Shown here: piece by piece, positions 2,710 through 27,098 of the stretch
How positions within the stretch are numbered: position 1 is the first letter of the stretch
How the letters are laid out: every line of letters starts with the position of its first letter
NCBI GenBank assembly: GCA_016176845.1
Contig: JACOWJ010000034.1
Span: 1 to 27,202 of the forward strand
Origin: Nitrospinota bacterium
Lineage (GTDB): Bacteria > 2-12-FULL-45-22 > JACOWJ01
DNA length: 27,202 bases
Reading direction: 5' to 3'
Made by a program: the position numbers and the translations under genes
Notes under the pieces: model-generated
Told to the model about the DNA's origin: nothing
Seen by the model: the letters and a program-made list of their open reading frames with translations, nothing else
Databases searched by the model: none

Positions 2710-2866
2710 GGCCTATCCGAAAACTCCTTTCTCTCCAAAAAAAGTGTTAAGTTTTAGGTTTTAGGTTTAACTTAACACTTAAAACATAAAACTTAACACT
2801 TTCTAAAACTTTTATTTTTTCAGTCGAGAGAGCCCTCTCGGCAAAGGTTTTCGGAGGGGCTCTAAG
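2710..2866. repeat. Inverted-end repeat element, copy 1 (CTATCCGAAAA family)
   Basis: The left end GGCCTATCCGAAAACTCC starts 2 bases after the bamA stop. The right end GGTTTTCGGAGGGGCTCTAA (about 2847-2866) is its imperfect reverse complement. Inside lie a heptad inverted array and a hairpin CGAGAG-AGCC-CTCTCG (about 2825-2840). The same ends occur at 5620-5708 and 20452-20549, and one end occurs at 23851-23882. The architecture resembles a non-coding MITE- or REP-like element; no transposase is present. Confidence 0.7.
2741..2802. repeat. Heptad array in inverted orientation (AGTTTTA / CTTAAAA type)
   Basis: The left arm reads as 7-base units AGTGTTA, AGTTTTA, GGTTTTA, and the right arm as CTTAACA, CTTAAAA, CATAAAA, CTTAACA. 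The two arms of about 30 bases are near-complementary and could fold into one long hairpin between bamA and ompH. Both strands contain TAA or TAG in every unit. A very similar array lies upstream of clpB at 27042-27098. Confidence 0.75.
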
Positions 2867-2894
2867 GGGTTAGGGATTATGGGGTTAGGATTGG
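2866..2894 (+). repeat. Short degenerate heptad array (GGGGTTA type)
   Basis: Units GGGGTTA, GGGATTA, TGGGGTTA and GGATTGG run from the right end of the repeat element towards ompH. The unit is the reverse complement of the CTAACCC-type unit at 21098-21132, so the same sequence type recurs 18 kb away in the opposite orientation. Confidence 0.5.
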
Positions 2895-2957
2895 CAGATC
2901 CCCTTAAAGAAGGGGGTTTAGTCTGCGCGAGAGTCTTTTATGAAGGGAATAAGCAGC

Positions 2958-3551
2958 ATGAGAAAGGTGGTCGCGTTTCTGGGGATCCTTGTTTTGAGCA
3001 GCCTCTACGCAGGGCCGAGATATTCCGCTGGCGCGGAGCCCTCTTTGAAGATCGGCTACGTGGACTTACAGAAGGCCGCCCGGGAGTCCAAAGCCGGCAA
3101 AGAAGCCTTCGCATTATTGAAGAAGGACTTCGACCAGAAACAGGCGATCATCGAAAAGAGGCAGAATGAAATCCAAAAGCTGCAGGGCGAGCTAAATCAG
3201 CAGGGACTGCTTCTGACGGAAGAGAGCAAGAAGGATAAGGAAGAAGTTTACGTCAAAAAACTCAAGGATCTGAAACGATACATCGACGATTCCAATCAGG
3301 AGCTCCAGAAAAAAGAGAAAGAGCTCACCCAGAAGATCTTCCTGGAGCTAGTCAAGATTATCGATAAGATCGGCAAGGAAGGCCAATACACCCTGATTTT
3401 TGAAAGACAAGAGGGCCTCCTGTATGCCTCTCAAGCCATCGACGTGACGGACGAAGTGATGAAGCGGTACGATCAACAGGGCAATCAATCGGCACAGTCA
3501 GCAGCTCCAGCTCCTGCCAGCAGCCCACCTGCAAGTCCACCGAAGAAGTAA
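2958..3551 (+). CDS. ompH: OmpH/Skp family periplasmic chaperone
   Basis: A Skp-type holdase that keeps unfolded outer-membrane proteins soluble in the periplasm and hands them to BamA. The product has a signal peptide ending near the A-G-A motif before EPSLKIGYVDLQKA, the typical Skp mature start. A long charged coiled-coil follows (about residues 50-130), then the conserved Y-x-x-I-F-E-x-x-x-x-L-L-Y-A segment, and a low-complexity tail rich in Pro, Ala and Ser ending in KK. An ATG six codons upstream (2940) is also in frame. The 2958 start is preferred because GAAGGGA precedes it at a suitable distance. The position between bamA and lpxD is the classic order. Confidence 0.92.
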   Translation: MRKVVAFLGILVLSSLYAGPRYSAGAEPSLKIGYVDLQKAARESKAGKEAFALLKKDFDQKQAIIEKRQNEIQKLQGELNQQGLLLTEESKKDKEEVYVKKLKDLKRYIDDSNQELQKKEKELTQKIFLELVKIIDKIGKEGQYTLIFERQEGLLYASQAIDVTDEVMKRYDQQGNQSAQSAAPAPASSPPASPPKK

Positions 3552-3554
3552 TCC

Positions 3555-4616
3555 ATGATGAAGCTCAGGGATCTTGCAGCCGTTGTAAAGGGCGAGCTAA
3601 AGGGCGATCCGGACATCGAGATCACCGGAATCTCCAGCCTGTGGAATGCCAGGGCCGGTGAGATCACCTTCGTTGCCCATAAGCGCTACCTCAAGGAAGT
3701 CGCCAACTGCCAGGCGTCGGCGATCCTGCTGGAAGAGGGAACGGAAGGGCCCTTTCCTGGCTCAGCCACAACCGGCGGGAGTAATCAGGAACCCGCCCTC
3801 ATTCGGGTGAAGAATCCCTACCTGGCCTTCGCCCAGATCCTGGAGCTCTTCCATCCCCCTAAGGTCAAGCCCGGATTTGTGAGCGAAAAGGCCTTCGTCG
3901 GCAAGGACGTCCGCCTGGGCCGGGATGTGCGCATCTTTCCCTTCGCTTACGTAGGAGACGAAGCAGAGGTGGGCGAAGGAACCACCCTCTATCCTTTCGT
4001 CTTCCTGGGAGACCGGGTCAAAGTAGGCCGGGAAACCCGGATTTACTCTCATGTCACGGTTTACGAGGAAGTCGAGATCGGGGACCGCGTGATCATTCAT
4101 GCAGGCGCGGTCATCGGAAGCGACGGGTTCGGCTTCGTCAGGATGGAGGATGGACAACAGCGCAAGATTCCCCAGGTCGGCCGGGTCATCATCGGGGACG
4201 AAGTGGAGATCGGGGCCAACGTATGCATCGACCGGGCCAACCTGGGAGAGACGATCATCCGGAGCGGGGTCAAGTTCGACAACCTGGTCCATGTGGCCCA
4301 CAACGTGGTCATTGGGGAAAACTCGATGATCGTAGCCCAGGCGGGTATCTCTGGGAGCTGCGAGCTGGGCAAGAACGTGATCCTGGCAGGCCAGGTCGGG
4401 GTGATCGATCACGTCAAGATCGGCGACAACGCCATCGTCCTCGCCCAATCGGGGGTTGTGGAGGACGTGCCGGCCGGATCCTTCGTCTCAGGCTCGCCAG
4501 CCATCCCTCATTCGGTTTGGAGGAGGGTCCAGGTTAGCCTTCCCCGGTTGCCGGAGCTCCTGAAGACGGTCAAGCGGTTGGAAAAGCGGGTCGAGGAGCT
4601 GGAGAAGGGCCGATAG
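3555..4616 (+). CDS. lpxD: UDP-3-O-acylglucosamine N-acyltransferase LpxD
   Basis: Adds the N-linked hydroxyacyl chain from acyl-ACP in the third step of lipid A synthesis, in the cytoplasm. The N-terminal uridine-binding domain (about residues 1-100, with G-I-S-S-L-W and I-T-F-V-A) is followed by a left-handed parallel beta-helix of hexapeptide repeats (about 105-315). That helix contains the FDNLVHVAHNVVIG stretch, whose AHN histidine corresponds to the catalytic base of E. coli LpxD. A short coiled helix (LKRLEKRVEELEKG-like) ends the chain. At 353 residues the length is normal. An ATG one codon downstream (3558) is an equal start candidate. It begins 3 bases after ompH and ends 4 bases before the next gene, so these are surely co-transcribed. 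Confidence 0.96.
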   Translation: MMKLRDLAAVVKGELKGDPDIEITGISSLWNARAGEITFVAHKRYLKEVANCQASAILLEEGTEGPFPGSATTGGSNQEPALIRVKNPYLAFAQILELFHPPKVKPGFVSEKAFVGKDVRLGRDVRIFPFAYVGDEAEVGEGTTLYPFVFLGDRVKVGRETRIYSHVTVYEEVEIGDRVIIHAGAVIGSDGFGFVRMEDGQQRKIPQVGRVIIGDEVEIGANVCIDRANLGETIIRSGVKFDNLVHVAHNVVIGENSMIVAQAGISGSCELGKNVILAGQVGVIDHVKIGDNAIVLAQSGVVEDVPAGSFVSGSPAIPHSVWRRVQVSLPRLPELLKTVKRLEKRVEELEKGR

Positions 4617-4620
4617 ACTA

Positions 4621-5601
<981 letters not shown>

Positions 5602-5619
5602 CGAGCAGACCCGAATCTA

Positions 5620-5708
5620 AGTGCCTATCCGGAAGCCCCTTTTCCCCCTCGGTTTTTCCATAAAGGGAGGCCTTCTCAGGGAGGTTTTCGGATAGGCTCT
5701 AAGGCACT
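5620..5708. repeat. Inverted-end repeat element, copy 2 (CTATCCGAAAA family)
   Basis: The left end AGTGCCTATCCGGAAGCCCC and the right end GGTTTTCGGATAGGCTCT followed by AAGGCACT are imperfect inverted repeats. The outermost AGTGCC/GGCACT match exactly. The element fills most of the gap between the oxidoreductase gene and the secreted repeat protein gene. It is about 89 bp and has no coding content. Confidence 0.72.
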
Positions 5709-5754
5709 GAAAGTAAAGATTGATTCGAAGTATAAACACGGGCAAGGACTAAAT

Positions 5755-8163
5755 ATGCAGAAGAACTTGAAAAAGATCCAGGGTAGCAAAATGGGGATAT
5801 TCTTTTTTTTGGTAAGCCTTTTGGCCTGTCGTCTGTTCATCTTTCCACCTGGCTCCAATGCAGATCCCTTGGACAACTGGCACTGGAGGAGCCCTTGGCC
5901 CCAGAGTTATTTTTCATGGATCACCTATGGGAACAACACCTTCGTAGCGGTAGGAAACAATGGCACAATCCTGACCTCTCCCGATGGGACCAGCTGGACA
6001 ATCAAGTCTTCGGGGACTGCCAGCACACTTTTCGGAGTCATTTACGGGAACAACACCTTCGTGGCTGTGGGAGAAAATGGCACAATCCTGACCTCTCTCG
6101 ATGGAATCACCTGGACAAAGAGGTCTTCGGGGACTACCCATTGGCTTTCTGGAGTCGCCTATGAAAACAACACCTTCGTGACGACAGGAAACAGTGGCAT
6201 AATCCTGGCCTCTCCCGATGGAATCACCTGGAAAAAGAGGTCTTCGGGGACTACCAACGCGCTTTATGGAGTCATTTACGGGAACAACACCTTCGTGGCT
6301 GTGGGAAGCAATGGCACGATCCTGACCTCTAAAAATGGGGTCGCCTGGGCAAAAAGTTCCTCAAAAACCGCTAATATTCTTTTGGGAATTACCTATGGGA
6401 ACAACACCTTCGTGGCGGTAGGAGGCAATGGCACAATCCTCGCTTCTCCTGATGGAATCTCCTGGACAAAGAGGTCTTCAGGGACTAATAATAATCTATT
6501 TGGAGTCACCTATGGGAGCAACGCCTTCCTGGCTGTGGGGGATTATGGCACGATCCTGACCTCTTTCAATGGGACCACCTGGATAATCAGCTCTTCAGGG
6601 ACTACCAGCACACTTTTCGGAGTCATTTACGGGAACAACACTATTGTGGCTGTGGGGAGAGGACGTGACGCAACAGGAAGGGATTATGGCACGATTCTGA
6701 CCTCTCTTAATGGGATCAACTGGACAGAAGAACCTTCAGGAACTACCAGTTGGCTTTCCGGAGTCACCTATGGGAACAGCACCTTTGTGGCCATAGGACA
6801 CGATTACAATGATAATACCGGCATGATCTTGACCTCTCCCGATGGAATTGCCTGGACAGAGAGACCTTCAGGGACTACCGGCTGGCTTTCCGGAGTCACC
6901 TATGGGAACAACACCTTCGTAGCTGTGGGGACAGGGTATGACGCGTCCGGAATGCCTTATGACACGATCCTGACCTCTCCCGATGGGATCACCTGGATAG
7001 AGAAACCTTCAGAGACTGCCGGTTGGCTTTCCGGAGTCACCTATGGGAACAGCACCTTTGTGGCCGTAGGACATGATTACAATGATAATATTGGCATGAT
7101 CTTGACTTCTCCCGATGGAATCGCCTGGATAGAGAAACCTTCAGGGACTACTAGTTGGTTTTCCGGAGTCACCTATGGAAAAGACACCTTTGTGGCCGTA
7201 GGATACAATTACAATGATAATACCGGCACAATCCTGACCTCTCCTGATGGGATCACCTGGACAGAGAAACCTTCAGGGACTACTAGTTGGCTTTCCGGAG
7301 TCACCTATGGAAAAGACATCTTTGTGGCCGTAGGATACAATTCCAATGATAATACCGGCACAATCCTGACCTCTCCTGATGGGATCACCTGGACAATCAG
7401 GTCTTCAGGGGCTACCAATTGGCTTTCTGGAGCCAGCTATGAGAACAACACCTTTGTGGTTGTGGGAGAAGTAGGCATAATATTGACTTCTCCCGATGGA
7501 ATCACCTGGACAAAGAGAGCTTCAGGGACTAATAATGATCTTTTGGGAATTACCTACGGGGGCAATACCTTTCTGGTTGTGGGAATGAATAGCTCGATAC
7601 TCCAATCTGGCATACCTCCTTCTATTGAAGCGGTCAACCCTGCGGTAGGGACCGTGGGAACGGAGTTGACCATCACAGGTTTCGGCTTCGGCGCAAACAA
7701 AGGGAAGGTCTCGATCGGAAAGATTCCTCTGACGATCCTGGAGTGGACGGATGAATCCATTCACGGCCGTTTAACAGGAGTCCCTACCCCCGGAACCTAT
7801 GATGTGACAATTCAGCCCATAGAGTCAGGGGGGACTGTCTCTATCGTTAAACAGGGCGGCTTTACGGTGAAGGCCCTGGAGATCGTTTCGGTTGATCCCA
7901 ATCGTAGTTCGGCTGGGGGGCATATCACCATCCATGGACGATTCTTTGGGACGACAAGAGGAAAGACCTATCTGGGTTATGAGTCAAAAGGAAAGCCTGT
8001 AAAAAAAGCTTGCAAAGTCCTCAGTTGGAAAATGGATCCCACGACCAATGAAGGGGATATTGTATTTGTGGTGCCCAAAGGTCTTCCTCCTGAGGAATAT
8101 GATCTCATCATCAACAACAATGTGGGTTCAACCACGCTGGCAGATGGGTTGACTATCCTATAG
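5755..8163 (+). CDS. Secreted 14-repeat beta-propeller-like protein with two IPT/TIG domains
   Basis: No named gene is recognised. A Lys-rich N-terminus and hydrophobic segment (about residues 14-30) indicate export; LLAC inside it is a possible but weak lipobox. From about residue 55 to 617 there are 14 tandem units of the form GVTYGNNTFVAVG-x-GTILTSPDG-ITW-T-x-x-SSGTT-x-x-LS. Units 1-6 and 13 are about 39 residues, units 7-12 are 44-47 residues with an added loop (for example HDYNDNTG), and the last unit is truncated. The pattern resembles Ycf48/BNR-like propeller blades, and 14 units would suit two seven-bladed propellers (inference). Two IPT/TIG immunoglobulin-like domains follow (about 621-705 and 706-802). 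Base composition is visibly more AT-rich than its neighbours, and it splits the lipid A block, suggesting acquisition. A cell-surface or secreted binding role is plausible, but no catalytic motif is seen. An in-frame ATG at 5791 is an alternative start. Confidence 0.85.
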   Translation: MQKNLKKIQGSKMGIFFFLVSLLACRLFIFPPGSNADPLDNWHWRSPWPQSYFSWITYGNNTFVAVGNNGTILTSPDGTSWTIKSSGTASTLFGVIYGNNTFVAVGENGTILTSLDGITWTKRSSGTTHWLSGVAYENNTFVTTGNSGIILASPDGITWKKRSSGTTNALYGVIYGNNTFVAVGSNGTILTSKNGVAWAKSSSKTANILLGITYGNNTFVAVGGNGTILASPDGISWTKRSSGTNNNLFGVTYGSNAFLAVGDYGTILTSFNGTTWIISSSGTTSTLFGVIYGNNTIVAVGRGRDATGRDYGTILTSLNGINWTEEPSGTTSWLSGVTYGNSTFVAIGHDYNDNTGMILTSPDGIAWTERPSGTTGWLSGVTYGNNTFVAVGTGYDASGMPYDTILTSPDGITWIEKPSETAGWLSGVTYGNSTFVAVGHDYNDNIGMILTSPDGIAWIEKPSGTTSWFSGVTYGKDTFVAVGYNYNDNTGTILTSPDGITWTEKPSGTTSWLSGVTYGKDIFVAVGYNSNDNTGTILTSPDGITWTIRSSGATNWLSGASYENNTFVVVGEVGIILTSPDGITWTKRASGTNNDLLGITYGGNTFLVVGMNSSILQSGIPPSIEAVNPAVGTVGTELTITGFGFGANKGKVSIGKIPLTILEWTDESIHGRLTGVPTPGTYDVTIQPIESGGTVSIVKQGGFTVKALEIVSVDPNRSSAGGHITIHGRFFGTTRGKTYLGYESKGKPVKKACKVLSWKMDPTTNEGDIVFVVPKGLPPEEYDLIINNNVGSTTLADGLTIL
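5917..7608 (+). repeat. Coding tandem repeats of 117-141 bp (14 units)
   Basis: The DNA of the propeller gene repeats phrases such as GGAGTCACCTATGGGAAC and ATCCTGACCTCTCCCGATGG throughout. Units 8, 10, 11 and 12 are nearly identical over long stretches, showing recent duplication or gene conversion, while units 3-6 are more diverged. Unit length falls into two classes, 117 bp and 132-141 bp. Such a tract is prone to copy-number change and to assembly collapse. Confidence 0.85.
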
Positions 8164-8176
8164 GCTAGGGGAGTTA

Positions 8177-8983
8177 ATGAAGGAAGCCAAAATCGGGTTG
8201 ATCGCCGGACAGGGAAAGCTGCCCCGGGTGTTGGCCGAGGCGGCCTTCAACCGCGGGATCGAGATTATCGCCGTGGCCCTGAACGATCGGATCGTTGAGG
8301 ACTTGCGACCTTTCTCACAGAAGGTTTACTCGTTTGGTATCGGCCAGACCAACAAGATCATCAAGACCCTGCGCAACGAAGGGGTCAAAGAGGTGACCAT
8401 CTTGGGGAAGGTGGACAAAAGCGTCCTCCTCAAGCCGTGGAAGCTCGATTGGCGAGCCATACGGACCCTTCGTGCCCTCCGGCATCACGGGGACGATAAC
8501 CTCTTTCTGGCGATCAAAGGCGAGCTGGAAAAGGATGGTCTCCATCTGGTCGATCAGACTCATTTCCTGAAGGAGCTCCTGGTCAAGAAAGGGGTATTCA
8601 CCCAGAGAAGCCCCACGCCCCATGAGTGGCAGGATATTGAATACGGGTTCCAATTGGCCAAGGAGATCGGCCGGTTGGACATTGGCCAAACGGTGGTCGT
8701 AAAAGGCAAGACGATCCTGGCTGTGGAAGCGATCGAGGGCACGGACGAGACGATCCGCCGTGGATGCCGATTGGGAGAGGCAGGAGCGATTGTGGTCAAG
8801 GTGAGCCGGCCCCAGCAGGACTTTCGCCTGGACGTGCCCACAGTGGGAAATCAGACCCTCGAAGTGATGCGAGAAGGCAAGGCGGTTGTCCTGGCCCTGG
8901 AGGCAGAGAAGACCCTGGTGATAGACTTAAAGGAGATGGTCGCCCTGGCCGATGCGGCCTCTATCTCTTTGGTGGCCGTGTGA
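8177..8983 (+). CDS. lpxI: UDP-2,3-diacylglucosamine pyrophosphatase LpxI
   Basis: Hydrolyses UDP-2,3-diacylglucosamine to lipid X and UMP at the inner membrane; it is the LpxH substitute used by alphaproteobacteria and many deltaproteobacteria (formerly DUF1009). The 268-residue protein has the N-terminal IGLIAGQGKLPRVLAEAA motif, the D-D-N-L-x-x-A-I segment, the RSPTPHEWQDIEYGFQLAKE block and the C-terminal VEAIEGTDETIRRG and FRLDVPTVGNQTLE blocks of the family. The start is preceded by GGGGAGTT. It lies 13 bp after the propeller gene, so it is probably read through from it. lpxB, which normally follows, is absent: the next gene starts on the opposite strand immediately after the stop. Confidence 0.95.
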   Translation: MKEAKIGLIAGQGKLPRVLAEAAFNRGIEIIAVALNDRIVEDLRPFSQKVYSFGIGQTNKIIKTLRNEGVKEVTILGKVDKSVLLKPWKLDWRAIRTLRALRHHGDDNLFLAIKGELEKDGLHLVDQTHFLKELLVKKGVFTQRSPTPHEWQDIEYGFQLAKEIGRLDIGQTVVVKGKTILAVEAIEGTDETIRRGCRLGEAGAIVVKVSRPQQDFRLDVPTVGNQTLEVMREGKAVVLALEAEKTLVIDLKEMVALADAASISLVAV

Positions 8984-9568: not shown

Positions 9569-9593
9569 AGCGATTTCCCTTTGTCCTCCGAGA

Positions 9594-12084: not shown

Positions 12085-12109
12085 AAATTTTCAATTTTCA
12101 ATTTTCAAT
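12085..12109 (-). repeat. Heptad array ATTGAAA x3 overlapping a gene end
   Basis: Read on the minus strand this is three copies of ATTGAAA. It overlaps the end of the BcrC-like gene, whose last residues (KIEN) and TGA stop are encoded by the array, and runs into the gap before the BcrB-like gene. The 7-base unit contains TGA. Confidence 0.7.
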
Positions 12110-13269
12110 CTCTCTTTTCGGGTCCTCAACATCTCGAGGAAGGCCTCCAGTCGGGTCCGGATCTGCCCCTGGTTGCTGGAGGAATAGTCCGAGTCCAGGT
12201 GCAGGACCGGGATCCCCTTCTCCTCCAGCCATCTCTTTTCCATCTCTGCCTTAAAGGCGTACGCATCACAGAACCTCAAGGTGTAGTACAGGACCCCATC
12301 GATCCGGTACTCCTCCATCAGTTCTTCTAGCCGCTTTCGCCGGGGGTTCTCGGCGGATTGCAGAACAGGAAGGGTCCCGCAGGGGGATTTCTCCAGGTAC
12401 CGGCGGGCCAATCCCTCCAGCGTTGGCTCCTCGACGGGCTCCCAGAACCAACGGGAGCCGGTGCAAAGATCGTCCATGACGATCCGGGCCTGCAGCGCAT
12501 CGGCCATCTGGATCACCTTGTCATCCCCCGCGGCCAGGATGCTCCCGAGGAGCAGGAGCCTGGGCTCCTCTTTGGGGTTCCCGGGAGACCTCCTGACCTC
12601 TCCGATCTCTCGACATACCTGCTTCAGGCCCTCGAGGTAACGGGCCCGGTCCAGCACAAAGCCGGCCTGGACCAGCGTGAAGAGCTCCGACCACCGAAGG
12701 GGTCCCTCATCCTCCCTTTGTAGCTCGTAAAGCTCGCGGAGGGAGCGACGGATCTCGTTATAGAGCCGAATGGAGGAGAGCAAGGCCTCAGGCTGGATCT
12801 GGCGACCGGCGATGGCCTCCACCCCTTTGGCAAAGTCTCTGACCTCCCGGATGAAGTACTCCAACCCATCCGGAGAACGGAAGTTGCGAGGCAGGCCGAT
12901 CGGGAGGGTCTTCACCCCGAAGTACTTCTCCCAGATCTCCAATGCCCATTCCATCTGGACACAGGCCGGCGCCTCGGCCAGGTAGTCCACCTCCCCATAG
13001 AGGGGGTCGTGGGCCTCGCCTCTCAGGCCAACACAGCTCTTGGCAAAGGAGCAGGAGTTCAAGTTGAGATAGTCCCCTCCGGCCGCCTCCGCCTCCCTCT
13101 CGCCTCCTTTCACCAGGCGAAGGGGGATATGGCCGGCGGCATGGATGATCTCCTCGGGCACGTAGTTGCAAAAATAACCGATCACCTTTCTCTCGGGAGA
13201 TCTTTCCCGGATGAGCTCGGCCGGACGGCCTTCGGCCGCCTCCTTCAATTCCGCAATGCTGGCAAGCAT
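12091..13269 (-). CDS. 2-hydroxyacyl-CoA dehydratase / benzoyl-CoA reductase family subunit (BcrC-like)
   Basis: 393 residues from the ATG at 13269, which has GGGAGGG four bases upstream; the open frame extends 63 codons further, but that part overlaps the Nudix gene and reads as non-protein. Family features are VIGYFCNYVPEEIIHAAG near residue 30, NSCSFAKSCVGL near 75, the DDLCTGSRWFWE block and LYYTLRFCDAY with a late LHLDSDYSS. It pairs with the BcrB-like gene downstream (gap of 48 bases). The last residues and the stop come from an ATTGAAA array, so the original C-terminus may have been altered. Its partner lacks an adjacent activator, so the reaction is not assignable. Confidence 0.83.
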   Translation of the reverse strand: MLASIAELKEAAEGRPAELIRERSPERKVIGYFCNYVPEEIIHAAGHIPLRLVKGGEREAEAAGGDYLNLNSCSFAKSCVGLRGEAHDPLYGEVDYLAEAPACVQMEWALEIWEKYFGVKTLPIGLPRNFRSPDGLEYFIREVRDFAKGVEAIAGRQIQPEALLSSIRLYNEIRRSLRELYELQREDEGPLRWSELFTLVQAGFVLDRARYLEGLKQVCREIGEVRRSPGNPKEEPRLLLLGSILAAGDDKVIQMADALQARIVMDDLCTGSRWFWEPVEEPTLEGLARRYLEKSPCGTLPVLQSAENPRRKRLEELMEEYRIDGVLYYTLRFCDAYAFKAEMEKRWLEEKGIPVLHLDSDYSSSNQGQIRTRLEAFLEMLRTRKERLKIEN

Positions 13270-13319
13270 TCTACCCTCCCTGAAAACGAGAGCCGTGAAA
13301 ATCGGGGTTGAAGATTGAA

Positions 13320-14123
13320 TTACGAGGGATAGAGCTCTCCGTATACCCGTCGGGTTCCGGCCTCGGGCGGTTGGAAGCCGAAGATCGCCTTTAGGAAGGA
13401 CATCACAATGTGGTAGGTGGCCCCCCAGAGCACCTCCTCTCGTCCCTCCTCCAGACAAACGAAACAGGGAAACTCCGCCCGGGCGTTACCACCTCCGATC
13501 CTTCCTCGATAAGATTCGGGGATAGCCAGAGAGTACAGGCCGTAGTTATCCTCCTCGAAAAAGGTCTCAAGGGGGACATGAAGAATTCGCTCCACTTCCC
13601 AGTTGGGCCTGAGCCTCACTCCCGGCCCGATCCATCCCACCAGGGGAAAGATGACCCGCTGGAAAGGAAGAAGCTGATAGCAGGGCAATGCCCCCAGGAA
13701 CTCCAGCCGAAAGGGGTTCAAGCGGACCTCTTCCCAGGCTTCCCTCATGGCATTGGCCAGGAAGAAGGTGATCCAATGAAAGAGATGCTGCCCCTGCTCC
13801 CTCGCCCGATGGTAGGCTGCCCCCCGTTTGAAATGCAACAGGTGATGGAGCAGACGATCGAAGAGAGGATGGAGGGTCCCCCCGGGACAGCAGAGGTCCC
13901 CGGGCTGCTGGACCCGGTCAGAGCGCTTATTGAGCAAGAGGGTGACCTGCTCCCCTTTACAGGAGAGCATCAGGAGCACCCCAGCCTCCCTCCACCTTTC
14001 CCCATCGCGGTTGCGCTCCCCGATGAAGGCCAGTTGCTCCAGATAGTCCACCTCCAGTGCAGCCAAGGCCTCGACCGCTCGGATCTTAAACTCCTCTTTC
14101 CTCCAGCATAGCGGTGAACGCAA
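13320..14123 (-). CDS. Nudix hydrolase, CoA-pyrophosphatase-like
   Basis: 267 residues. The Nudix catalytic core AMREAWEEVRLNP (RE-x-x-EE) follows a GG glycine motif (CCPGGTLHPL) after an unusually long insertion of about 45 residues (HHLLHFKRGAAYHRAREQ and onwards), so the Nudix box is split compared with most relatives. L-L-L-N-K-R-S-D-R-V and QQPGDLCCPGG resemble the UPF0035/NudL segment that precedes the box in CoA pyrophosphatases. The start is TTG at 14123, eight bases after AAGGAG; no upstream ATG is available. It is first in the run that leads into the two acyl-CoA dehydratase-like genes, so CoA or acyl-CoA turnover would suit the context (inference). Confidence 0.8.
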   Translation of the reverse strand: MRSPLCWRKEEFKIRAVEALAALEVDYLEQLAFIGERNRDGERWREAGVLLMLSCKGEQVTLLLNKRSDRVQQPGDLCCPGGTLHPLFDRLLHHLLHFKRGAAYHRAREQGQHLFHWITFFLANAMREAWEEVRLNPFRLEFLGALPCYQLLPFQRVIFPLVGWIGPGVRLRPNWEVERILHVPLETFFEEDNYGLYSLAIPESYRGRIGGGNARAEFPCFVCLEEGREEVLWGATYHIVMSFLKAIFGFQPPEAGTRRVYGELYPS

Positions 14124-17135: not shown

Positions 17136-17165
17136 CTTCAATCGCATAGGAATTTCCATTTTCAG
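17136..17165 (-). repeat. GGAAATTCC box, copy 1
   Basis: On the minus strand the core reads GGAAATTCCTATGCGATTGA, with AAAATG before it. It is the first of three copies in the window (others at 18243-18270 and 21033-21058). It sits between tupB and a heptad inverted array that begins 15 bases away. Confidence 0.65.
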
Positions 17166-17172: not shown

Positions 17173-17245
17173 AGCTCATGGCTCATGGCTCATAGCAAAG
17201 GCAAAAAGCCGGCCCATCTTTGCTATGAGCTACGAGCTACGAGCT
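17173..17245. repeat. Heptad inverted array between tupB and tupA (GGCTCAT / ACGAGCT)
   Basis: The left arm 17173-17200 has units AGCTCAT, GGCTCAT, GGCTCAT, AGCAAAG, and the right arm 17218-17245 has CTTTGCT, ATGAGCT, ACGAGCT, ACGAGCT. The 28-base arms pair with four mismatches, some compatible with G-U. The tupA stop codon TAG (17244-17246) lies at the outer edge of the right arm. The predicted RNA would form a long hairpin between tupA and tupB. Confidence 0.75.
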
Positions 17246-18083
17246 AATTCATCTCCTTCGGATTGGGGAAGAAAAGGGGCTGACCATACTCGTCCTGCCC
17301 ATAGATCCCGATCAGCCGCTGGGTCTCGGGGGAGACCAGGAAGTCGGCGAAGGCCCGTCCCCCGGCGGCGTTGACCTTGGGATGGCGGGCGGAATCAAGC
17401 TCGATTACGCTGTAGAAGTTCTTCAGTGCCCCGTCCCCCTCCACCAGGACGGACAGGCCCAGGCCCTTCTTCATCGCCAGGTAAGTTCCCCGATCGACCA
17501 GCGTGTAGCCTCCCTTCTGGTCGGCGATTCGCAGGGTCTCCCCCATCCCCTGGCCAGCCTCGATATACCATTTCCCCTGGGGAGATAGTCCGGCGGCCTT
17601 CCATAGGTTCAGCTCCATCTTATGCGTGCCCGACTGATCGGCCCGGGAGACAAAAAGGCTTTGGGCCTGGGCCATGGCCTTGAAGGCCGCCGCGGACGAA
17701 GGAGTGCCCTGGATCCGGGCAGGGTCCTGGGCCGGGCCGACGATCACGAAATCGTTGTGCATCACCGGCCGGCGACGCAGGCCGTGCCCCTCTGCCATAA
17801 ATTTTTTCTCGGCCTCGGGCGAATGGACCAGCAGGACATCCGCCTCCCCTCGACTTCCCATGGCGAGGGCCTCCCCCGAGCCCACGGCGATCGTCTTGAC
17901 CAAGTAGCCCGTTTTCCGCTCGAAGATCGGGAGCAGGAAGTCCAGCAGCCCCGAATCTTGGGTGCTGGTGGTGGTGGCCAGGATCAGGCCTTGACCGGCA
18001 GAATGGACAGGAACAGCCTTCAGGATCAGCAGCAGACAGATCATGCCCATCAGGGCCAACCCGATCCGGGAGCCCCAACGCAT
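17244..18083 (-). CDS. tupA: Tungstate ABC transporter substrate-binding protein
   Basis: Captures tungstate in the periplasm. The 279-residue product has a signal peptide (MRWGSRIGLALMGMICLLLILKA to the V-H-S-A-G site), then the TupA/WtpA-type signature LATTTSTQDSGLLD (about residues 33-46). The oxyanion-binding G-S-G-E-A-L-A-M-G-S-R-G-E-A-D-V-L segment and VSRADQSGTHKME follow. The TTTSTQDSG motif separates TupA from ModA, so tungstate is favoured, though molybdate cannot be excluded. The ATG at 18083 has AAGGGA directly touching it, a poor spacing; the frame is open upstream to 18389. The operator lies 336 bases before the ATG, so a long leader or leader peptide exists. The stop is within a heptad array. 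Confidence 0.9.
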   Translation of the reverse strand: MRWGSRIGLALMGMICLLLILKAVPVHSAGQGLILATTTSTQDSGLLDFLLPIFERKTGYLVKTIAVGSGEALAMGSRGEADVLLVHSPEAEKKFMAEGHGLRRRPVMHNDFVIVGPAQDPARIQGTPSSAAAFKAMAQAQSLFVSRADQSGTHKMELNLWKAAGLSPQGKWYIEAGQGMGETLRIADQKGGYTLVDRGTYLAMKKGLGLSVLVEGDGALKNFYSVIELDSARHPKVNAAGGRAFADFLVSPETQRLIGIYGQDEYGQPLFFPNPKEMN

Positions 18084-18242: not shown

Positions 18243-18270
18243 AACTTGATCGTATAGGAATTTCCTTTTG
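18243..18270 (-). repeat. GGAAATTCC box, copy 2
   Basis: The minus-strand core is AAAAGGAAATTCCTATACGA followed by TCAAG, within the tupA leader. It is about 29 bases from the CCTGTCC heptad array, in the same relative order (array, then box, on the minus strand) as the other two copies. Confidence 0.65.
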
Positions 18271-18295: not shown

Positions 18296-18335
18296 CCCAT
18301 CCCTGTCCCCTGTACCCTGTTCCCTGTCCCCTAAC
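18296..18335 (+). repeat. Heptad array CCTGTCC type in the tupA leader
   Basis: Plus-strand units run CCCATCC, CTGTCCC, CTGTACC, CTGTTCC, CTGTCCC, CTAACTT in register of seven. No inverted partner is seen. Unlike the other arrays, most units lack stop triplets, so the tupA frame stays open through it (reading as Gly-Gln-Gly-Thr-Gly-Tyr-Arg type residues). Confidence 0.65.
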
Positions 18336-20250: not shown

Positions 20251-20279
20251 ACCGAGCCTCCTCCCGTGAACCCTGGCGC

Positions 20280-20297
20280 TATGTTTATCAAAACATA
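20280..20297. promoter_or_regulatory. ModE-like operator of the regulator
   Basis: TATGTTTATCAAAACATA is a 7-base inverted repeat (TATGTTT/AAACATA) with a 4-base centre, 29 bases upstream of the regulator ATG. It overlaps the spacer and -10 element of the predicted promoter, so binding should repress. Its half-site geometry resembles the ModE box (TAT-type ends with a short spacer). Confidence 0.75.
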
Positions 20298-20310
20298 AGG
20301 CGAAAGTCAA
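20282..20310 (-). promoter_or_regulatory. Predicted sigma-70 promoter of the regulator-porin unit
   Basis: On the minus strand TTGACT (20305-20310) and TAAACA (20282-20287) are spaced by 17 bases. The operator covers the -10 side, and the start codon is about 30 bases downstream. No competing promoter was seen in this gap. Confidence 0.6.
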
Positions 20311-20451
20311 TCCCGAAATGATGGGAGGTCCCTCGGAGCTCCCCGAAGCGCAAGAGGCAAAACCTCTTGACTTCCCCTGCCCTCAGGTGTAACCTCCACC
20401 ATTAATTGATGAGAGGAAAGAGCCCATAAGTTAGTATGTTCTTTATTAAAT

Positions 20452-20549
20452 TCCTATTCGAAAAGCCTGCAAAGCCACACTCACCCCTTCTCTCCCTTTC
20501 GTGAGAGGGTGAGGGAGGGATGAGGGGCCTTTGTTTTTCGGATAGGCTC
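20452..20549. repeat. Inverted-end repeat element, copy 3 (CTATCCGAAAA family)
   Basis: The left end TTCCTATTCGAAAAGCC and the right end GGCCTTTGTTTTTCGGATAG followed by GCTC form the family's inverted ends. The middle holds a long hairpin (CTCACCCCTTCTC against GAGAGGGTGAG). It is about 98 bp and ends 16 bases before the small gene at 20566, so it could supply or block that gene's promoter. Confidence 0.68.
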
Positions 20550-20565
20550 AAAATTAGGAGGGGAC

Positions 20566-20943
20566 ATGCCAATTCCAGCTGCAGAAGCCAAGGCTTGGGG
20601 GGTCGTCTTCGGGGAAGAATTCTCGAGCGCACCGACTCCCTATTTGGGCATCAACATCTTTGATGTACCTATACAACATTGGGAGGCGGTCCTGCGGAAC
20701 GTACGCCAGCAGAGCGAGATCGTAAAGCAGGTAGGAGGCCAATCGCATTTGTGGTCTGTGCGCGATCACGGCCAACGGAAGCGGGTGTTGTGGATTAACC
20801 GCTACCCTCACTCCTTAAGGGATCGGATGAACAAGAATGACATGATGGCATTCTGCGAGGGTCCAATCTGGAAGGAGTTCTGTAGTCTGATCGAAACCTA
20901 TCAGTGGTTCCTGGTTACCGAACAGCCTTCGACCGAGCCATAA
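20566..20943 (+). CDS. Unrecognised 125-residue protein
   Basis: No known family is recognised. AGGAGGGG lies just before the ATG, and the chain has mixed aromatic and charged content without low complexity (IFDVPIQHWEAVLRNV, HLWSVRDHGQRKRVLWINRY, FCEGPIWKEFC), which suggests a real cytosolic protein. There is no signal peptide or membrane segment. It stands alone between the tungstate module and the cupredoxin-like gene, right after a repeat element. It may be a remnant or a lineage-specific protein. Confidence 0.5.
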   Translation: MPIPAAEAKAWGVVFGEEFSSAPTPYLGINIFDVPIQHWEAVLRNVRQQSEIVKQVGGQSHLWSVRDHGQRKRVLWINRYPHSLRDRMNKNDMMAFCEGPIWKEFCSLIETYQWFLVTEQPSTEP

Positions 20944-21032
20944 ACCCCAAGGGAAGTAAGGACAAATAACGCGGTTAATATACCCATTCAGGCTGCGGCA
21001 GGCCACAAGGTGGGAGCACCTCACCGGCCAAT

Positions 21033-21058
21033 TTAATTGTATAGGAATTTCCTTTTCA
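21033..21058 (-). repeat. GGAAATTCC box, copy 3
   Basis: The minus-strand core AAAAGGAAATTCCTATACAA is followed by TTAAAT. It precedes the CTAACCC heptad array by 16 bases, in the same arrangement as the other two copies. Confidence 0.65.
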
Positions 21059-21068
21059 AGGGGGCAGA

Positions 21069-21132
21069 GGCTAGGGATTAGCGAAATCTCTTCTTTACTA
21101 ACCCCTAGCCCCTAATCCCTAACCCCTAATTT
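21069..21132. repeat. Heptad array CTAACCC with short inverted arm
   Basis: Five units CTAACCC, CTAGCCC, CTAATCC, CTAACCC, CTAATTT run from 21098 to 21132. A left arm GGCTAGGGATTAG (21069-21081) pairs with part of it. It sits between the 125-residue protein gene and the 3-prime end of the cupredoxin-like gene. Every unit holds TAA or TAG. Confidence 0.75.
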
Positions 21133-21163
21133 AGCCATGTCGGTTTCATAAGGGAAAAGAGCT

Positions 21164-21631
21164 CTACTTGATCAGGACCGTTCCCGTTTCCACGACGTCT
21201 TGTTGCGTGGGATAAGCCTTAACCTTTGCTCCCGTCAGGGTATAGGCGTACTCCCCCGGCTCGACGAAACACAGGCTCGCAGTCCCCCCAAAAGGGATCC
21301 CCTCCGACTGGAAAGTGCCATCAGACTGGAGAGCGAAATGGAGCGGGTCCGTACATGCGAGCCTCACCTGGTCCCCTCGATCAAAGCGGATTTGTACCGG
21401 TCCATTCGTGGCGTTGTACCAGATCACGGTGGTACCTTTGCCGGAGGCCACGGTCTTGGGGACCAGGCCCTTTTCTCCTCGAATCTCCACGACCCGGGTG
21501 GTTAGCTGATCTGTCGGGATGAGGGCGATCCCCTTCTTTCCCTCCGCCTGTTGCGCAAGGCATGTCCCATAGCTTAAAGTAAGAAAAGTAACCACCGGCA
21601 CCAGAAACCACCCAATTCCTTTCCGCATCAT
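21164..21631 (-). CDS. Exported cupredoxin-like protein
   Basis: 155 residues with a clear signal peptide (MMRKGIGWFLVPVVTFLTLSYGTCLA, cleaved before QQAEG). The mature domain has the cupredoxin beta pattern: a GTTVIWYNATNGPVQIRF strand pair, then IPFGGTASLCFVEPGEYAYTL. A Cys sits in CTDPLHF and another in LCFVEPG. The usual copper ligand set H-C-H-M is not clearly complete, so metal binding is uncertain. AAGGAGG is seven bases before the ATG. It is monocistronic, and divergent from selB. Confidence 0.65.
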   Translation of the reverse strand: MMRKGIGWFLVPVVTFLTLSYGTCLAQQAEGKKGIALIPTDQLTTRVVEIRGEKGLVPKTVASGKGTTVIWYNATNGPVQIRFDRGDQVRLACTDPLHFALQSDGTFQSEGIPFGGTASLCFVEPGEYAYTLTGAKVKAYPTQQDVVETGTVLIK

Positions 21632-21839
21632 AACATTCCTCCTTTTCGCGAATAGCCCAATACCTTACAGCCACTGCTCCCAAGAGATACTCCAGACATC
21701 CAGAGGCACCTACCGTCCTGCCCTTCGAAAAGACTCGATGGACCCTCTACCATGAACCACCTATACCCCAGGCCCGTCAGGGACAATAAAGGCTAAAGAT
21801 AACAGACGAGAAAGAAAAGTCAAGCGTTTGAAAAATGGC

Positions 21840-21868
21840 TTGAAGTGGTTTCGAACATAGGATACACT
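21840..21868 (+). promoter_or_regulatory. Possible sigma-70 promoter of selB
   Basis: TTGAAG (21840-21845) and TACACT (21863-21868) are 17 bases apart and about 50 bases before the selB start. Each hexamer matches the consensus in four of six positions. Confidence 0.35.
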
Positions 21869-21916
21869 TTTCACCTTGGGGAAATTCAACATTGTCGAGA
21901 GAAGGACCGTAGACTT

Positions 21917-23818
21917 ATGAAACAGATCATTGTGGGAACCGCCGGCCATATCGACCACGGCAAGACATCGCTGGTCAAGGCCCTGACGGGCATCGATACC
22001 GATCGGCTGAAGGAGGAGAAGGAGCGGGGGATCACCATCGACCTGGGGTTTGCCCACCTTCCCCTGGAAGACGGGATCCAGTTAGGGATCGTGGATGTTC
22101 CCGGGCACGAGCGTTTCGTTAAGAACATGTTGGCCGGAGCGGGAGGGATCGACCTGGTCCTCCTGGTCATTGCGGCCGACGAAGGGGTCATGCCCCAAAC
22201 CCGAGAGCACCTGGCGATCTGCGAGATGCTCAAGGTCAAGGACGGCTTGGTGGCGCTGACGAAGGTGGATATGGTGGAAGAGGAGTGGCTGGAGCTGGTC
22301 AAGGAGGATCTCCAGGGGTTCCTGAAGGGGACCTTCCTGGCGGGGCGACCTATCATCCCGGTCTCCTCCCGGACGGGGGAGGGGCTGGACCTTTTACGGC
22401 GGGAGCTGGCTACTATGGCGAGCGCCGTTGCTCCCAAATCGAGCGAGGGCCCTTTCCGGCTGCCCATCGACCGGGTATTCATCATCCAGGGCTTCGGCAC
22501 GGTGGTTACCGGCACCCTCTTCTCTGGTTCGGTGAAGGTGGAGAGCTCCGTGACGGTCTATCCGAAAGGCTTGCCGGCTCGAGTCCGGAGCATCCAGGTT
22601 TACGGTCGCCCGGTAACCGAGGCAATGGCTGGCCAGCGGACGGCCATCAACCTTCAAGGGTTGGGAAAGGAAGAGGTGGAGCGGGGCGACGTCCTCTCCG
22701 CTTCCGGCGGCCTGCGGCCCACCTTTATGCTCGATGTCAGTTTTCAACTCCTCTCTGATGCCCCTCGCCCCTTGAAGGATCGAAGCCGGATTCGATTCCA
22801 CCATGGTACCAATGAGCTGTTGGGCCGGGTCCGTTTCCTGGACGTGGAGGAACTGCTCCCTGGCCAAAGGGCTTACGCCCAGCTCCGGCTGGAGGAGCCT
22901 GTGGTCGCCCTGCCCAAGGATCGCTACGTGATCCGGAGCTACTCGCCGATCCAGACGATCGGAGGCGGGGAGATCCTGGAGGTGGCTCCCCAGAAGCTGA
23001 AGAAGGGCCGCAAGGACATCTTGCAGCACTTCGAGACCCTGGAGAAGGGCTCGGGAATGGAAGTGGTGGCTCGCCAGCTTCAGGAGGCGGGGATCAATGG
23101 GCTGAGGCTGGCCGACCTGATTCCCCGCAGCCCCCTGTCGCTGGATCGACTCAAAGGAATCTGTAGCCAGATAGCGAGGGAGGGCTGGGCAGTGACCATC
23201 CAGGAGGAGGGGGGCTGGCTGGTCCATGCCCAACAGTATTCCCGCCTGCTGGAAGGAATCGTCAACCGTCTTAAGGCCTTCCACGCCCGCTTCCCGTTGA
23301 AGGGCGGCATCCCTAAGGAAGAGCTGAAAAGCAAGAGCGGTTTGGTGGAGGAGAAGGTTTTCTCCAGGGCGCTGAAGGATCTGGAGCGGGACGGCCGGAT
23401 CATGGTCCAGGCGGAGAAGGTCCGACTGGCCGACCACAGCGTTCAGGTAGGAGGAAAGTTGGGGATGCTGAAGGAGCAAATCGAGGGAGAGTACCTCGCC
23501 GGGGGGAACCAGCCCCCTGATCTGGAGAAGGTCTTCGAGAAGTTGAAGGTCCAGAAGCCGGAGGAGAAGGAGCTGATCCATGTCCTGCTAGAGGAAAACC
23601 GATTGGTGCGGATCAAAGGGGACCTCTTTTACCATCGAGAGGCCTTCACCCAGATCGAGGGGCGGCTGAAGGATTTCCTGAAGGAGAACGGGGAGATTAC
23701 GCCCGGTCAGTTCAAGGACCTGTTCCAGATCTCGCGCAAGTACGCCATCCCGCTGCTGGAGTACTTCGATGGCCACAGGCTGACCGTCCGGCTGGGGGAT
23801 AAACGGGTGCTCCGATGA
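21917..23818 (+). CDS. selB: Selenocysteine-specific translation elongation factor SelB
   Basis: Delivers Sec-tRNA to UGA codons guided by a SECIS hairpin. The 633-residue product starts [19 protein letters not shown] (P-loop GHIDHGKT, residues 10-17), followed by [13 protein letters not shown] and ALTKVD. Domain II/III beta-barrels (about 180-370) precede the C-terminal winged-helix repeats (about 380-633) that bind SECIS RNA. The start at 21917 is chosen because the P-loop protein begins there; the frame is open 24 codons earlier with a weak site. GAAGGA lies 11 bases upstream. selA, selD and a tRNA-Sec were not seen nearby, and no UGA-containing gene is evident in the window. Confidence 0.96.
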
Positions 23819-23839
23819 TCCGGCTCAGAATATGAAAAT

Positions 23840-24295
23840 TCAGGGTAGAGACCTCCTGGGAGGTTTTCGGATAGGGTCTAAGCCCGAAGCGTTGTTTTTC
23901 TTGCGTTTCGTATGGATTTTTTTAAGGGTTAATTGGTTTTTCTTTAACCAGAAGGCCTCGTCGAATTTGCTGCTGTAATACTCCTCGAAGGCGATTTCTT
24001 GGGGAGATAGCCTCTTCCCATCGATGAGATATGGAGCCAACTCGTCGGGGTCGGACGCTTTTTCCTCATCCGGTTCATCCTTCATGTGACCCAAGGAGAG
24101 GCCGAACTTTCCCCTCTCGTTGGGGGCCTGTAAGGTGATAATGAGGAGGTCAGCGGGACCGAAGAGGCCTCTGGACATGAGGTTTTCCAGGAGAGGGCCC
24201 AATTCATCGGAGGCAAGGATCGCTCGAGCCAGGGCCTGAAGAAGTTTTTCATATTCCGCTTCGGGTCCTTGTCTTCGTCTTCTTCTATAACTCAT
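23840..24295 (-). CDS. Unrecognised small protein downstream of clpB
   Basis: 151 residues with a basic N-terminus (MSYRRRRRQG), a helical middle (EKLLQALARAILASDELGPLLENLMSR) and the segment SPQEIAFEEYYSSKFDEAFW. There is no signal or membrane helix and no family is recognised. AAGGTGA precedes the start, and clpB ends 54 bases upstream on the same strand, so co-transcription is likely. The last 13 residues (LDPIRKPPRRSLP) are coded by the CTATCCGAAAA repeat, so the original C-terminus has been replaced or extended by the repeat. Confidence 0.6.
   Translation of the reverse strand: MSYRRRRRQGPEAEYEKLLQALARAILASDELGPLLENLMSRGLFGPADLLIITLQAPNERGKFGLSLGHMKDEPDEEKASDPDELAPYLIDGKRLSPQEIAFEEYYSSKFDEAFWLKKNQLTLKKIHTKRKKNNASGLDPIRKPPRRSLP
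23851..23882. repeat. Single end of the CTATCCGAAAA repeat family (copy 4)
   Basis: ACCTCCTGGGAGGT followed by TTTTCGGATAGGGTCTAAG is the right-hand end of the family seen at 2847-2866 and 5681-5704. No matching left end is found. It lies inside the coding end of the small gene and a few tens of bases after the selB stop; its ACCTCC/GGAGGT stem with TTTT may also act as a terminator for selB. Confidence 0.6.
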
Positions 24296-24349
24296 AGTTC
24301 ACCTTTTCAGACTTGGGGGCCAGGGGTAACCCCTGGCCCTCAACCTTCG

Positions 24350-26980
24350 TTAGGCTGCGGCCATCGCAGCCGCCTCTTTGGCCGCCTGGCTGAAAACCAG
24401 CTTCTCCCCTTTTGAATCCACATCGCACAGGATGGTGTCTCCTTCAGAGAAGCGGCCTTCCAGCACCTGCAAGGCCAGTGGGTCCATGATCATCCGCTGA
24501 ATGGCCCGTTTCAGGGGGCGGGCCCCATAAGTCGGGTCGTAGCCATGCTGCGAGAGCAATTCCTTGGCGGCATCCGTCAGGACGATATCCATCCGCTTCT
24601 CGACCAGCCGCCTCTTGAGATAGCGGAGCTGAATGTCGATGATGGCCTTGATCTGCTCCCGGGTCAAGCCACGGAAAATAATGGTCTCATCGACGCGGTT
24701 TAAGAACTCCGGCCGGAAGTTGGCCCGCAAGGAATCGGTGACCCGAAGGCGCATCTCCTCGTAATCCTTCTCCCCTAAATCCTGGATCCACTGGCTCCCA
24801 ATGTTAGAGGTCATAATGATCACCGTGTTTTTGAAATCCACCGTGCGGCCATGGCCGTCGGTGAGGCGGCCATCATCCAAGATCTGCAGGAGGATATTGA
24901 AGACATCCGAGTGGGCCTTTTCGATCTCATCAAAAAGGATGACCGAGTAAGCTCGGCGTCGCACCGCCTCGGTCAACTGTCCCCCCTCCTCGTAGCCCAC
25001 GTAGCCCGGAGGGGCCCCGATCAGGCGAGCCACCGTATGGCGCTCCTGGTACTCGCTCATGTCCAATCGGACCATGGCCTGCTCGTCGTCGAAGAGGAAC
25101 TCGGCCAGTGCCCTGGCCAGCTCCGTCTTGCCCACGCCCGTAGGGCCCAGGAAGATGAAGGAGCCAATGGGGCGGTTGGGGTCCTGCAGGCCCGCCCGGG
25201 CACGTCGAACAGAATTGGAGACCAGGCGGATGGCCTCGTCCTGGCCCACCACCCGCAGTCCCAGCCGCTCTTCCATCTTGATGAGCTTTTCGATCTCCCC
25301 CTCCATCATCTTGGAGACCGGGATCCCGGTCCACTTGGCGACCACCTCGGCCACGTCCTCCTCATCGACCTCCTCCTTAAGGAAGCCGTTCTGGCTCTGG
25401 AGCCCGGCCAGCTTCTGGTTCTCAGTCGCCAGTTCCCGCTCCAGGGAGGCGAGGACCCCGTAGCGCAGCTCGGCTACCTTGCCCAGCTCGCCCATCCGCT
25501 CGGCCCGCTCGGCCTCCAGCCTGGCCTCCTCGATCCGTCCCTTGATCGACCGGATCTTCTCGATGGCCTCCTTCTCCTGCTGCCAATGGACCTTCATGCC
25601 GTCCCGCTCCTCCTCCAGGTTCGAGAGCTCCTCCTCCAGCCTCTGGAGCCGCTCCCGTGAGGCCGGGTCGTTCTCCTTCTTCAAGGCCTCCCGCTCGATC
25701 TCGTACTGCATAATCTTGCGCTGCACCTCGTCGATCTCCGTGGGCAGGCTGTCGATCTCGATTCGCAGCCGCGAGGCGGCCTCATCGATCAGGTCGATCG
25801 CCTTGTCTGGCAAGAAACGATCGCTGATATAGCGGTGGGAGAGGGTGGCGGCGGCGATGATCGCCGAGTCCTTGATGCGCACGCCGTGGTGGACCTCGTA
25901 GCGCTCCTTCAACCCGCGCAAGATTGCGATGGAATCCTCCACTGTGGGCTCTTTGACGAAGACGGGCTGGAATCGGCGCTCCAGGGCGGCATCCTTCTCG
26001 ATGTGCTTGCGGTACTCATCCAGCGTGGTGGCCCCGATGCAGCGCAGCTCCCCCCGGGCCAGGGCCGGCTTGAGCATGTTGGAGGCATCGATCGCCCCCT
26101 CGGCCGCCCCGGCCCCCACGATGGTGTGCAGTTCATCGATGAAGAGGATGATCTGACCCTCCGCCTCCTGGATCTCCTTGAGGAGGGCCTTCAAGCGATC
26201 CTCGAACTCCCCACGATACTTCGTCCCGGCCACCAGGGCCCCCATGTCCAGCGCCGCCAGCCGCTTCTCCTTGAGCCCCTCGGGGACGTCCCCGGCCACG
26301 ATGCGCCGGGCTAACCCCTCGACGATGGCGGTCTTGCCGACTCCCGGCTCCCCGATCAGGACGGGGTTGTTCTTGGTGCGGCGCGAGAGCACCTGGATCA
26401 CCCGTCGGATCTCGTCGTCGCGGCCGATGACCGGATCGAGCTTTCCCTTGCGGGCCAGTTCCGTCAGGTCGCGGCAGTAACGCTCCAGGGACTGGTACTT
26501 CTCCTCCGGGTTGGGATCGGTGACCCGTTGAGTACCTCGGATGCTGAGCAAGGCCTTCAGGATAGTGTCCCGGCTGATCCCCAAAGACCTCATGGCCTGG
26601 GCGGCGCTTCCGCCCTTCTCTTCCGCGATGGCCAGCAGGATGTGCTCGGTGCTGATGTATTCGTCCTTGAGCCGTTCGGCCTCCTGGGCAGCGGCCTCCA
26701 AGATACCCTTGGTCCGAGGAGAGATGTAGACCTGGCCAATGGGGGTCCCTCCTCCATAGACCTGCGGCAATCGCCGCAGCCCTTCCTCCAGCCGCTGCAG
26801 GAGGAGCTGCGGGTCGGTGCCCAGCTTCAGCAGCAAGGGTCCAATGAGCCCTTCTTTTTGCTGGATCAGGGCCAAAAGGAGGTGCTCGACCTCCAGGGCC
26901 TGGTGTTGATGCTTTTCCGCAATGGATTGGGCTTCCTGAACGGCCTCTTGGGCCTTCACCGTCAACTTATCCCAGCGCAT
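24350..26980 (-). CDS. clpB: ATP-dependent disaggregase ClpB
   Basis: A Hsp100 ring ATPase that rescues aggregated proteins with DnaK. The 876-residue chain has a Clp N-domain (about residues 1-145), first AAA+ module with GEPGVGKTA (about 206-214) and [10 protein letters not shown], the M-domain coiled coil (about 400-530; [16 protein letters not shown]), and second AAA+ module with [10 protein letters not shown] and [11 protein letters not shown]. It ends with an Ala-rich tail. GGAGGAGG precedes the ATG. Length and M-domain distinguish it from ClpA/ClpC. No CIRCE or sigma-32 promoter is visible; a heptad inverted array sits 62 bases upstream. Confidence 0.97.
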
Positions 26981-27041
26981 CCTGCCTCCTCCTCACATGT
27001 GCGAGAAATCTTTATTGAGGATCTAAGCCCAGAATTGAAAC

Positions 27042-27098
27042 AGGTTTTAAGTTTTAGGTTTTAGGCACTTAAAACTTAAAACTTAAAACCTAAAACTT
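27042..27098. repeat. Heptad inverted array upstream of clpB (AGTTTTA / CTTAAAA)
   Basis: Left units GGTTTTA, AGTTTTA, GGTTTTA are followed, after a GGCA centre, by CTTAAAA, CTTAAAA, CTTAAAA, CCTAAAA. The arms of about 24 bases are complementary with few mismatches. The same heptads occur between bamA and ompH at 2741-2802. Confidence 0.75.

What the first reader, a model, noticed from the sequence alone, without database searches (positions are those of the whole stretch)
2741..27098. Seven or more different 7-base tandem arrays populate the intergenic spaces
Arrays at 2741-2802, 2866-2894, 12085-12109, 17173-17245, 18296-18335, 21069-21132 and 27042-27098 all keep a 7-base register, yet their units differ (AGTTTTA, GGGGTTA, ATTGAAA, GGCTCAT, CCTGTCC, CTAACCC). 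Four of the seven are built as inverted pairs that can fold into hairpins of 13 to 30 bases. Conserved period with variable sequence suggests a mechanism (slippage copying or a templated insertion) rather than descent from one repeat. Short heptanucleotide repeats are known from cyanobacteria (STRRs), but this variable-unit, inverted form is not something I can match to a named family.
Basis: partly seen in the sequence, partly recalled or inferred. Interest (0 to 1): 0.75.

Follow-up and report, generated by a model that had tools for sequence, protein, structure and literature searches.

The report
Seven-base repeats inside mobile-looking hairpin modules
This uncultured bacterium's intergenic DNA holds some 300 short arrays that repeat every seven bases, most of them within palindromic elements scattered round the genome; seven-base repeats are already known from other bacteria, but the paired, module-bound form and the exchangeable inner sequences are unusual.

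Summary
In 1.07 Mb of the window's own genome, period-7 arrays are the only enriched tandem class (149 long exact runs against about 2 by chance). There are 307 arrays, about 93% outside called genes, and 55% have an inverted partner. The units are not unlimited: 45 forms collapse into six families. Array-bearing sites carry dispersed flanking sequence about twice as often as other intergenic sites. At least 118 module copies share one 3' tail (AAAATGGAAATTCCTATACGAT) behind unrelated palindromic bodies; three of the window's seven arrays have it. In C-type hairpins the two arms carry different fixed unit variants, so the pairs spread by copying and are not made afresh. A same-order relative has different units, or none, in the same gene gaps. 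Period-7 abundance is already published, as is a proposal that 7 nt reflects a DNA-polymerase slippage step (cited in PMC4679880). Best explanation: 7-base-step slippage inside intergenic palindromic modules that then dispersed, with no proven function. Novel: arrays as arms of modules with constant ends and swappable bodies. Unknown: the mobilising enzyme.

The parts
2741..2802 (.). Family A (AAAACTT-type) inverted pair of heptad arrays, between bamA and skp; one hairpin
   Evidence: DNA fold z -6.0
2706..2728 (+). Left inverted end of a dispersed element (TTAGAGCCTATCCGAAAACCTCC-like, 6 mismatches, weak)
2843..2865 (-). Right inverted end of the same dispersed element (4 mismatches), so the heptad hairpin would lie inside it
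5618..5702 (.). Likely copy of the same dispersed element without a heptad array (right end exact, left end 6 mismatches)
   Evidence: no period-7 array
2866..2894 (+). Weak GGGGTTA-type array: two units then a register shift; not scored as an array
   Evidence: absent; read directly
12086..12109 (-). Family B array (GAAAATT x3.4, 100% match), overlapping the 3' end of the ORF 12091-13458
17141..17162 (-). Constant 3' tail of the D-type module
   Evidence: 1 mismatch to AAAATGGAAATTCCTATACGAT
17174..17246 (-). Family D (AGCTCAT-type) inverted pair: arms 17174-17193 and 17222-17246
   Evidence: DNA fold z -5.3
18249..18270 (-). Constant 3' tail of the F-type module
   Evidence: 2 mismatches
18301..18332 (-). 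Family F array (CCCCTGT-type), not a hairpin
21036..21057 (-). Constant 3' tail of the C-type module
   Evidence: 3 mismatches
21069..21132 (-). Family C (CCCCTAA/TAGGGRY) inverted pair: short left arm, right array 21098-21129
   Evidence: pairing weak (z -0.5); arms compared
27042..27099 (.). Family A inverted pair, 23-bp perfect hairpin stem, next to the ClpB-family gene 24350-26980
   Evidence: DNA fold z -6.5

Best explanation
The arrays grow and shrink by replication slippage in steps of about seven bases. In this lineage that happened inside intergenic palindromic elements (MITE-like or REP-like modules), which were then copied to many intergenic sites, carrying the arrays with them. Shown: exclusive period 7, six unit families, dispersed flanks, a constant module tail, neighbouring units more alike than distant ones, copy-number differences of one heptad between near-identical elements, arm mismatches fixed in C-type copies, and lineage-specific gain at conserved gene gaps. 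Inferred: that slippage is the source of the 7-base step, that an enzyme (not found) moved the modules, and that the arrays have no essential function but are tolerated between genes and rarer in divergent, promoter-bearing gaps.
For: Period 7 only, 149 against about 2; 307 arrays, six families. Neighbouring units differ by 1.05 bases, rising to 2.3 four units apart, against about 1.7 when unit order is shuffled. A1 elements have inner lengths of 52 or 59 bases, and C hairpins two to eight units round similar spacers. 72% of array clusters have dispersed flanks against 38% for array-free intergenic and 24% for coding sites; five or more copies 59% against 27% and 2%. Constant tail with about 1.7-2 bits at its core positions and almost none upstream, 118 copies; no copy of the ends without a body. 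C arms: innermost unit GC on the left in 12 of 14 copies and AT on the right in 14 of 14, arms no more alike within a module than between modules. The bamA-skp gap is 249 bp with arrays here and about 25-40 bp without in G001, while skp-lpxD is 3 bp here and carries an 8-base inverted array there. Array clusters per kb in gaps up to 400 bp: co-directional 2.1, convergent 2.1, divergent 0.7.
Against: No target-site duplication was found at module ends (left and right heptamers identical in 3 of 57), and no mobilising enzyme: no Y1 transposase (RAYT), and other transposases were not searched. The genome is 68% complete. No second strain was available, so copy-number change in real time is not shown. 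Generic slippage does not by itself explain why 7, with 8 as the runner-up in some other genomes.
Confidence: 0.6

Rival explanations
1. The arrays are selected binding sites: a nucleic-acid-binding protein reads a 7-base register in DNA or RNA, and arrays spread and persist because they regulate neighbouring genes.
For: Published proposals of this kind exist for Beggiatoaceae (PMC4679880) and Geobacter metallireducens (PMC2700814). Arrays avoid divergent gaps and sit near gene ends.
Against: Six unrelated unit families in one genome; orthologous gaps in the relative have other units or none; no strand bias relative to genes; C-type arm pairing is not maintained.
Confidence: 0.2
2. A dedicated templated mechanism (reverse transcriptase, or fold-back copying of one arm into the other) writes the arrays and makes the inverted pairs locally.
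For: 55% of arrays have an inverted partner, far above controls (132 inverted, 18 direct, 1 reversed); some stems are perfect.
Against: No reverse transcriptase in the held genome; C-type arms carry different unit variants that are fixed by descent; in NPL-UPA2, with a higher array density, inverted pairing is nearly absent (2 of 44), so pairing is not needed to make heptad arrays.
Confidence: 0.08
3. The hairpins act as transcription terminators or mRNA-end stabilisers, like REP/BIME elements, and are kept for that.
For: Hairpins close to upstream stop codons, depleted in divergent gaps; strong stems in three window pairs.
Against: Weak or no pairing in several families (F, C); almost equal enrichment next to start codons (quintiles 26, 16, 15, 12, 28); no T-run seen on the array side of the stems read; no Rfam match.
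Confidence: 0.12

Closest known systems
Heptanucleotide long simple sequence repeats of prokaryotes (Mrazek 2007, cited in PMC4679880; cyanobacterial STRR; Nostoc/Xanthomonas G-rich heptamers, PMC4692102)
   Same: Seven-base tandem units, enriched between genes, scattered over phyla, under-represented between divergent genes
   Different: Here six unit families occur together, 55% as inverted pairs and often in modules with constant ends; the published Nostoc (GGGGAYT) and Xanthomonas (GGGNATC) units are not among the frequent units of this genome
Geobacter metallireducens paired global regulator binding sites, classes 1-3 (PMC2700814)
   Same: Short tandem arrays of 7 or 8 bases placed in pairs on opposite strands, intergenic, multicopy
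   Different: Fewer copies there (16-48 sequences aligned per class), variable distance between sites in classes 1 and 2, and no constant-tail module is described; units differ (MTYCTGA, GTTGCTYN)
BrickBuilt MITE of Porphyromonas gingivalis (PMC4596501)
   Same: A tandem array carried inside a dispersed intergenic element with constant leader and tail
   Different: 23-base units, one unit sequence, about 19 copies in one strain, inverted-repeat ends
Beggiatoaceae TAACTGA direct repeats (PMC4679880)
   Same: About 170 short heptamer arrays in intergenic DNA of a single genome
   Different: One unit, direct orientation, next to start codons

Membership tests
Heptanucleotide LSSR / STRR | Tandem 7-base units far above chance | tested here: met
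Heptanucleotide LSSR / STRR | Mainly in non-coding DNA | tested here: met
   23 of 307 arrays more than half inside called genes
Heptanucleotide LSSR / STRR | Published units (GGGGAYT, GGGNATC, TAACTGA) | tested here: not met
   not among the frequent canonical units listed
REP/BIME with RAYT | Y1 transposase (RAYT) encoded in the genome | tested here: inconclusive
   none found with PF01797, in a 68% complete genome
REP/BIME with RAYT | Dispersed intergenic palindromes | tested here: met
MITE | Conserved ends round a variable interior, multicopy | tested here: met
   constant tail, 118 copies; same tail with another body in G001
MITE | Target-site duplication | tested here: not met
   left and right heptamers identical in 3 of 57 modules
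MITE | Cognate transposase with the same ends | not tested
   only Y1 transposase and reverse transcriptase families were searched
Geobacter paired hepta/octanucleotide sites | Paired arrays on opposite strands | tested here: met
Geobacter paired hepta/octanucleotide sites | Bound by a global regulator | not testable with these tools
   also only predicted in PMC2700814

The most novel reading that the evidence does not exclude
An active cassette-like family: modules with fixed ends (YRARTTA ... AAAATGGAAATTCCTATACGAT) that carry interchangeable palindromic bodies, of which heptad hairpins are the commonest, so that one mobilising system spreads many unrelated hairpins through a whole order of bacteria. 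The relative G001 carries the same tail behind a different body.
Probability: 0.2. Interest if true: 0.75.

Novelty: new variant of a known kind. Interest (0 to 1): 0.5.

Why it matters
Why bacterial intergenic repeats prefer exactly seven bases (sometimes eight) is an open question; a genome with some 300 arrays in six families, plus a relative with other units in the same gaps, makes it testable. The constant-tail modules with swappable bodies may be an undescribed class of non-autonomous mobile element in an order with few sequenced members.

Tried and rejected
RAYT/REP origin: no Y1 transposase found (incomplete genome). Templated insertion by reverse transcriptase: none found. Simple target-site duplication: not seen. 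Body inserted into a pre-existing tail repeat: no copy of the ends without a body was found. Known RNA family: no Rfam match. Plasmid origin of the D module: no match. A cyanobacterial STRR yardstick from Nostoc plasmids was not available: a low-complexity query found nothing and the accessions tried are not held.

Full report
What was checked. The window is contig 55 of a 1.53-Mb, 68%-complete genome whose only near relative in the collection is one same-order genome, G001. I took 1.07 Mb of it, the window included, for analysis. Six of the seven arrays are real period-7 arrays; 2866-2894 is marginal.

Statistics. Across lags 1-30, only 7 and its multiples stand out: 149 exact runs of 12 or more at lag 7 against about 2 in Markov sequence. 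The scan finds 307 arrays, 23 of them mostly inside called genes. Intergenic DNA alone gives 248 arrays against 0.1 expected, and the window 9 against 0.04. Genes were called by a codon-usage script of my own, so coding borders are approximate. Arrays with other unit periods between 4 and 12 are rare here.

Unit vocabulary. Forty-five canonical units fall into six main families, AAAACTT, AAAATTG, CCCCTAA, AGCTATG, AAAATGC and CCCCTGT, plus a dozen outliers; the variants are often transitions. The grouping was made by eye. Similar units recur in scattered unrelated genomes: AAWTGVA repeats in 21 of 241, AGCTCRW in 8, TAGGGRY in 6; the backwards-read control is low in most genomes but not in all.

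Inverted pairs. Adjacent arrays within 150 bp are of the same family and inverted in 58 cases and direct in 4, with one polarity per family. By k-mer test 158 of 285 arrays have an inverted partner nearby or within themselves (132 nearby against 18 direct and 1 reversed control). G001 shows 9 of 19; NPL-UPA2 (G066, identified by its contig length), G094 and G238 show almost none. Heptad arrays therefore do not need hairpins; pairing is a feature of this lineage and a few others.

Modules. A tail AAAATGGAAATTCCTATACGAT followed by a degenerate YRARTTA occurs behind C, D, F and A hairpins, behind two REP-like pairs (GAGGAATCT and GAAGCAATC types) and behind GC-rich hairpins. Base-by-base information is high across the tail and near zero upstream. 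Three window arrays carry it. B and E arrays instead often border GC hairpins with a TTCG, TGCG or TACG loop. Of 241 array clusters 72% have dispersed flanks, against 38% of array-free intergenic and 24% of coding control sites. G001 has the same tail behind another body.

History of arrays. Neighbouring units are more alike than distant ones, as local duplication predicts. In C hairpins the inner left unit is GC in 12 of 14 copies and the inner right unit AT in 14 of 14; the arms are no more alike within than between modules. This speaks against recent fold-back copying and against selection for perfect pairing, and for spread of founder modules. Arm matching was tested for the C family only.

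Comparison with G001. The bamA-skp-lpxD order is conserved (LpxD 58% identical). This genome has arrays between bamA and skp, where G001 has none; G001 has an 8-base inverted array between skp and lpxD, where this genome has 3 bp. In other shared gaps the units differ or are missing. The sample is small: 25 pairs, eight with arrays here.

Position. In gaps up to 400 bp, array clusters per kb are 2.1 in co-directional, 2.1 in convergent and 0.7 in divergent gaps; in co-directional gaps they sit near either end. Divergent gaps in that size class are few (26), so that figure is rough. The same avoidance of divergent gaps is reported for Xanthomonas and Nostoc heptamers (PMC4692102).

Literature. 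Heptanucleotides were reported as the most abundant long-unit class in most repeat-rich genomes, and 7 nt was proposed as the length contacted by DNA polymerase (Mrazek 2007, as cited in PMC4679880; I did not read the original). Paired hepta/octanucleotide sites on opposite strands are in PMC2700814. A tandem array inside a MITE is in PMC4596501.

Verdict. The 7-base step is a known, unexplained bacterial trait; the new part is its packaging in paired arms of dispersed modules with constant ends.

Noticed in passing
L149-L153 (G066, NPL-UPA2 Unc8): Long intergenic stretches of about 70-110 bases keep a 7-base phase while the unit drifts step by step (for example GTGATTA to GTTACCA), and chains of 8- and 7-base arrays recur in similar order at several loci.
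   Followed up: partly
L124-L133 (G184, G094): Eight-base arrays are also enriched in these genomes, in G094 about as common as seven-base ones.
   Followed up: partly
window 5755-8163: ORF with 39-residue repeats (117-bp tandem units), a beta-propeller-like protein by eye; not scanned against Pfam.
   Followed up: no
L060:13637-13743 and L094, L088, L069: The direct repeat GCCGGTGAAGTTCCCCACGGGCTA, or close forms of it, flanks B-type arrays on one or both sides.
   Followed up: no
window 2706-2865, 5618-5702, 23859-23881: Another dispersed element with inverted ends TTAGAGCCTATCCGAAAACCTCC; one window copy encloses a heptad hairpin and one does not.
   Followed up: partly
own genome, family C arrays: TAGGGRY arrays have several G-runs and resemble the G-quadruplex-forming heptamers of Nostoc (PMC4692102); not tested.
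   Followed up: no
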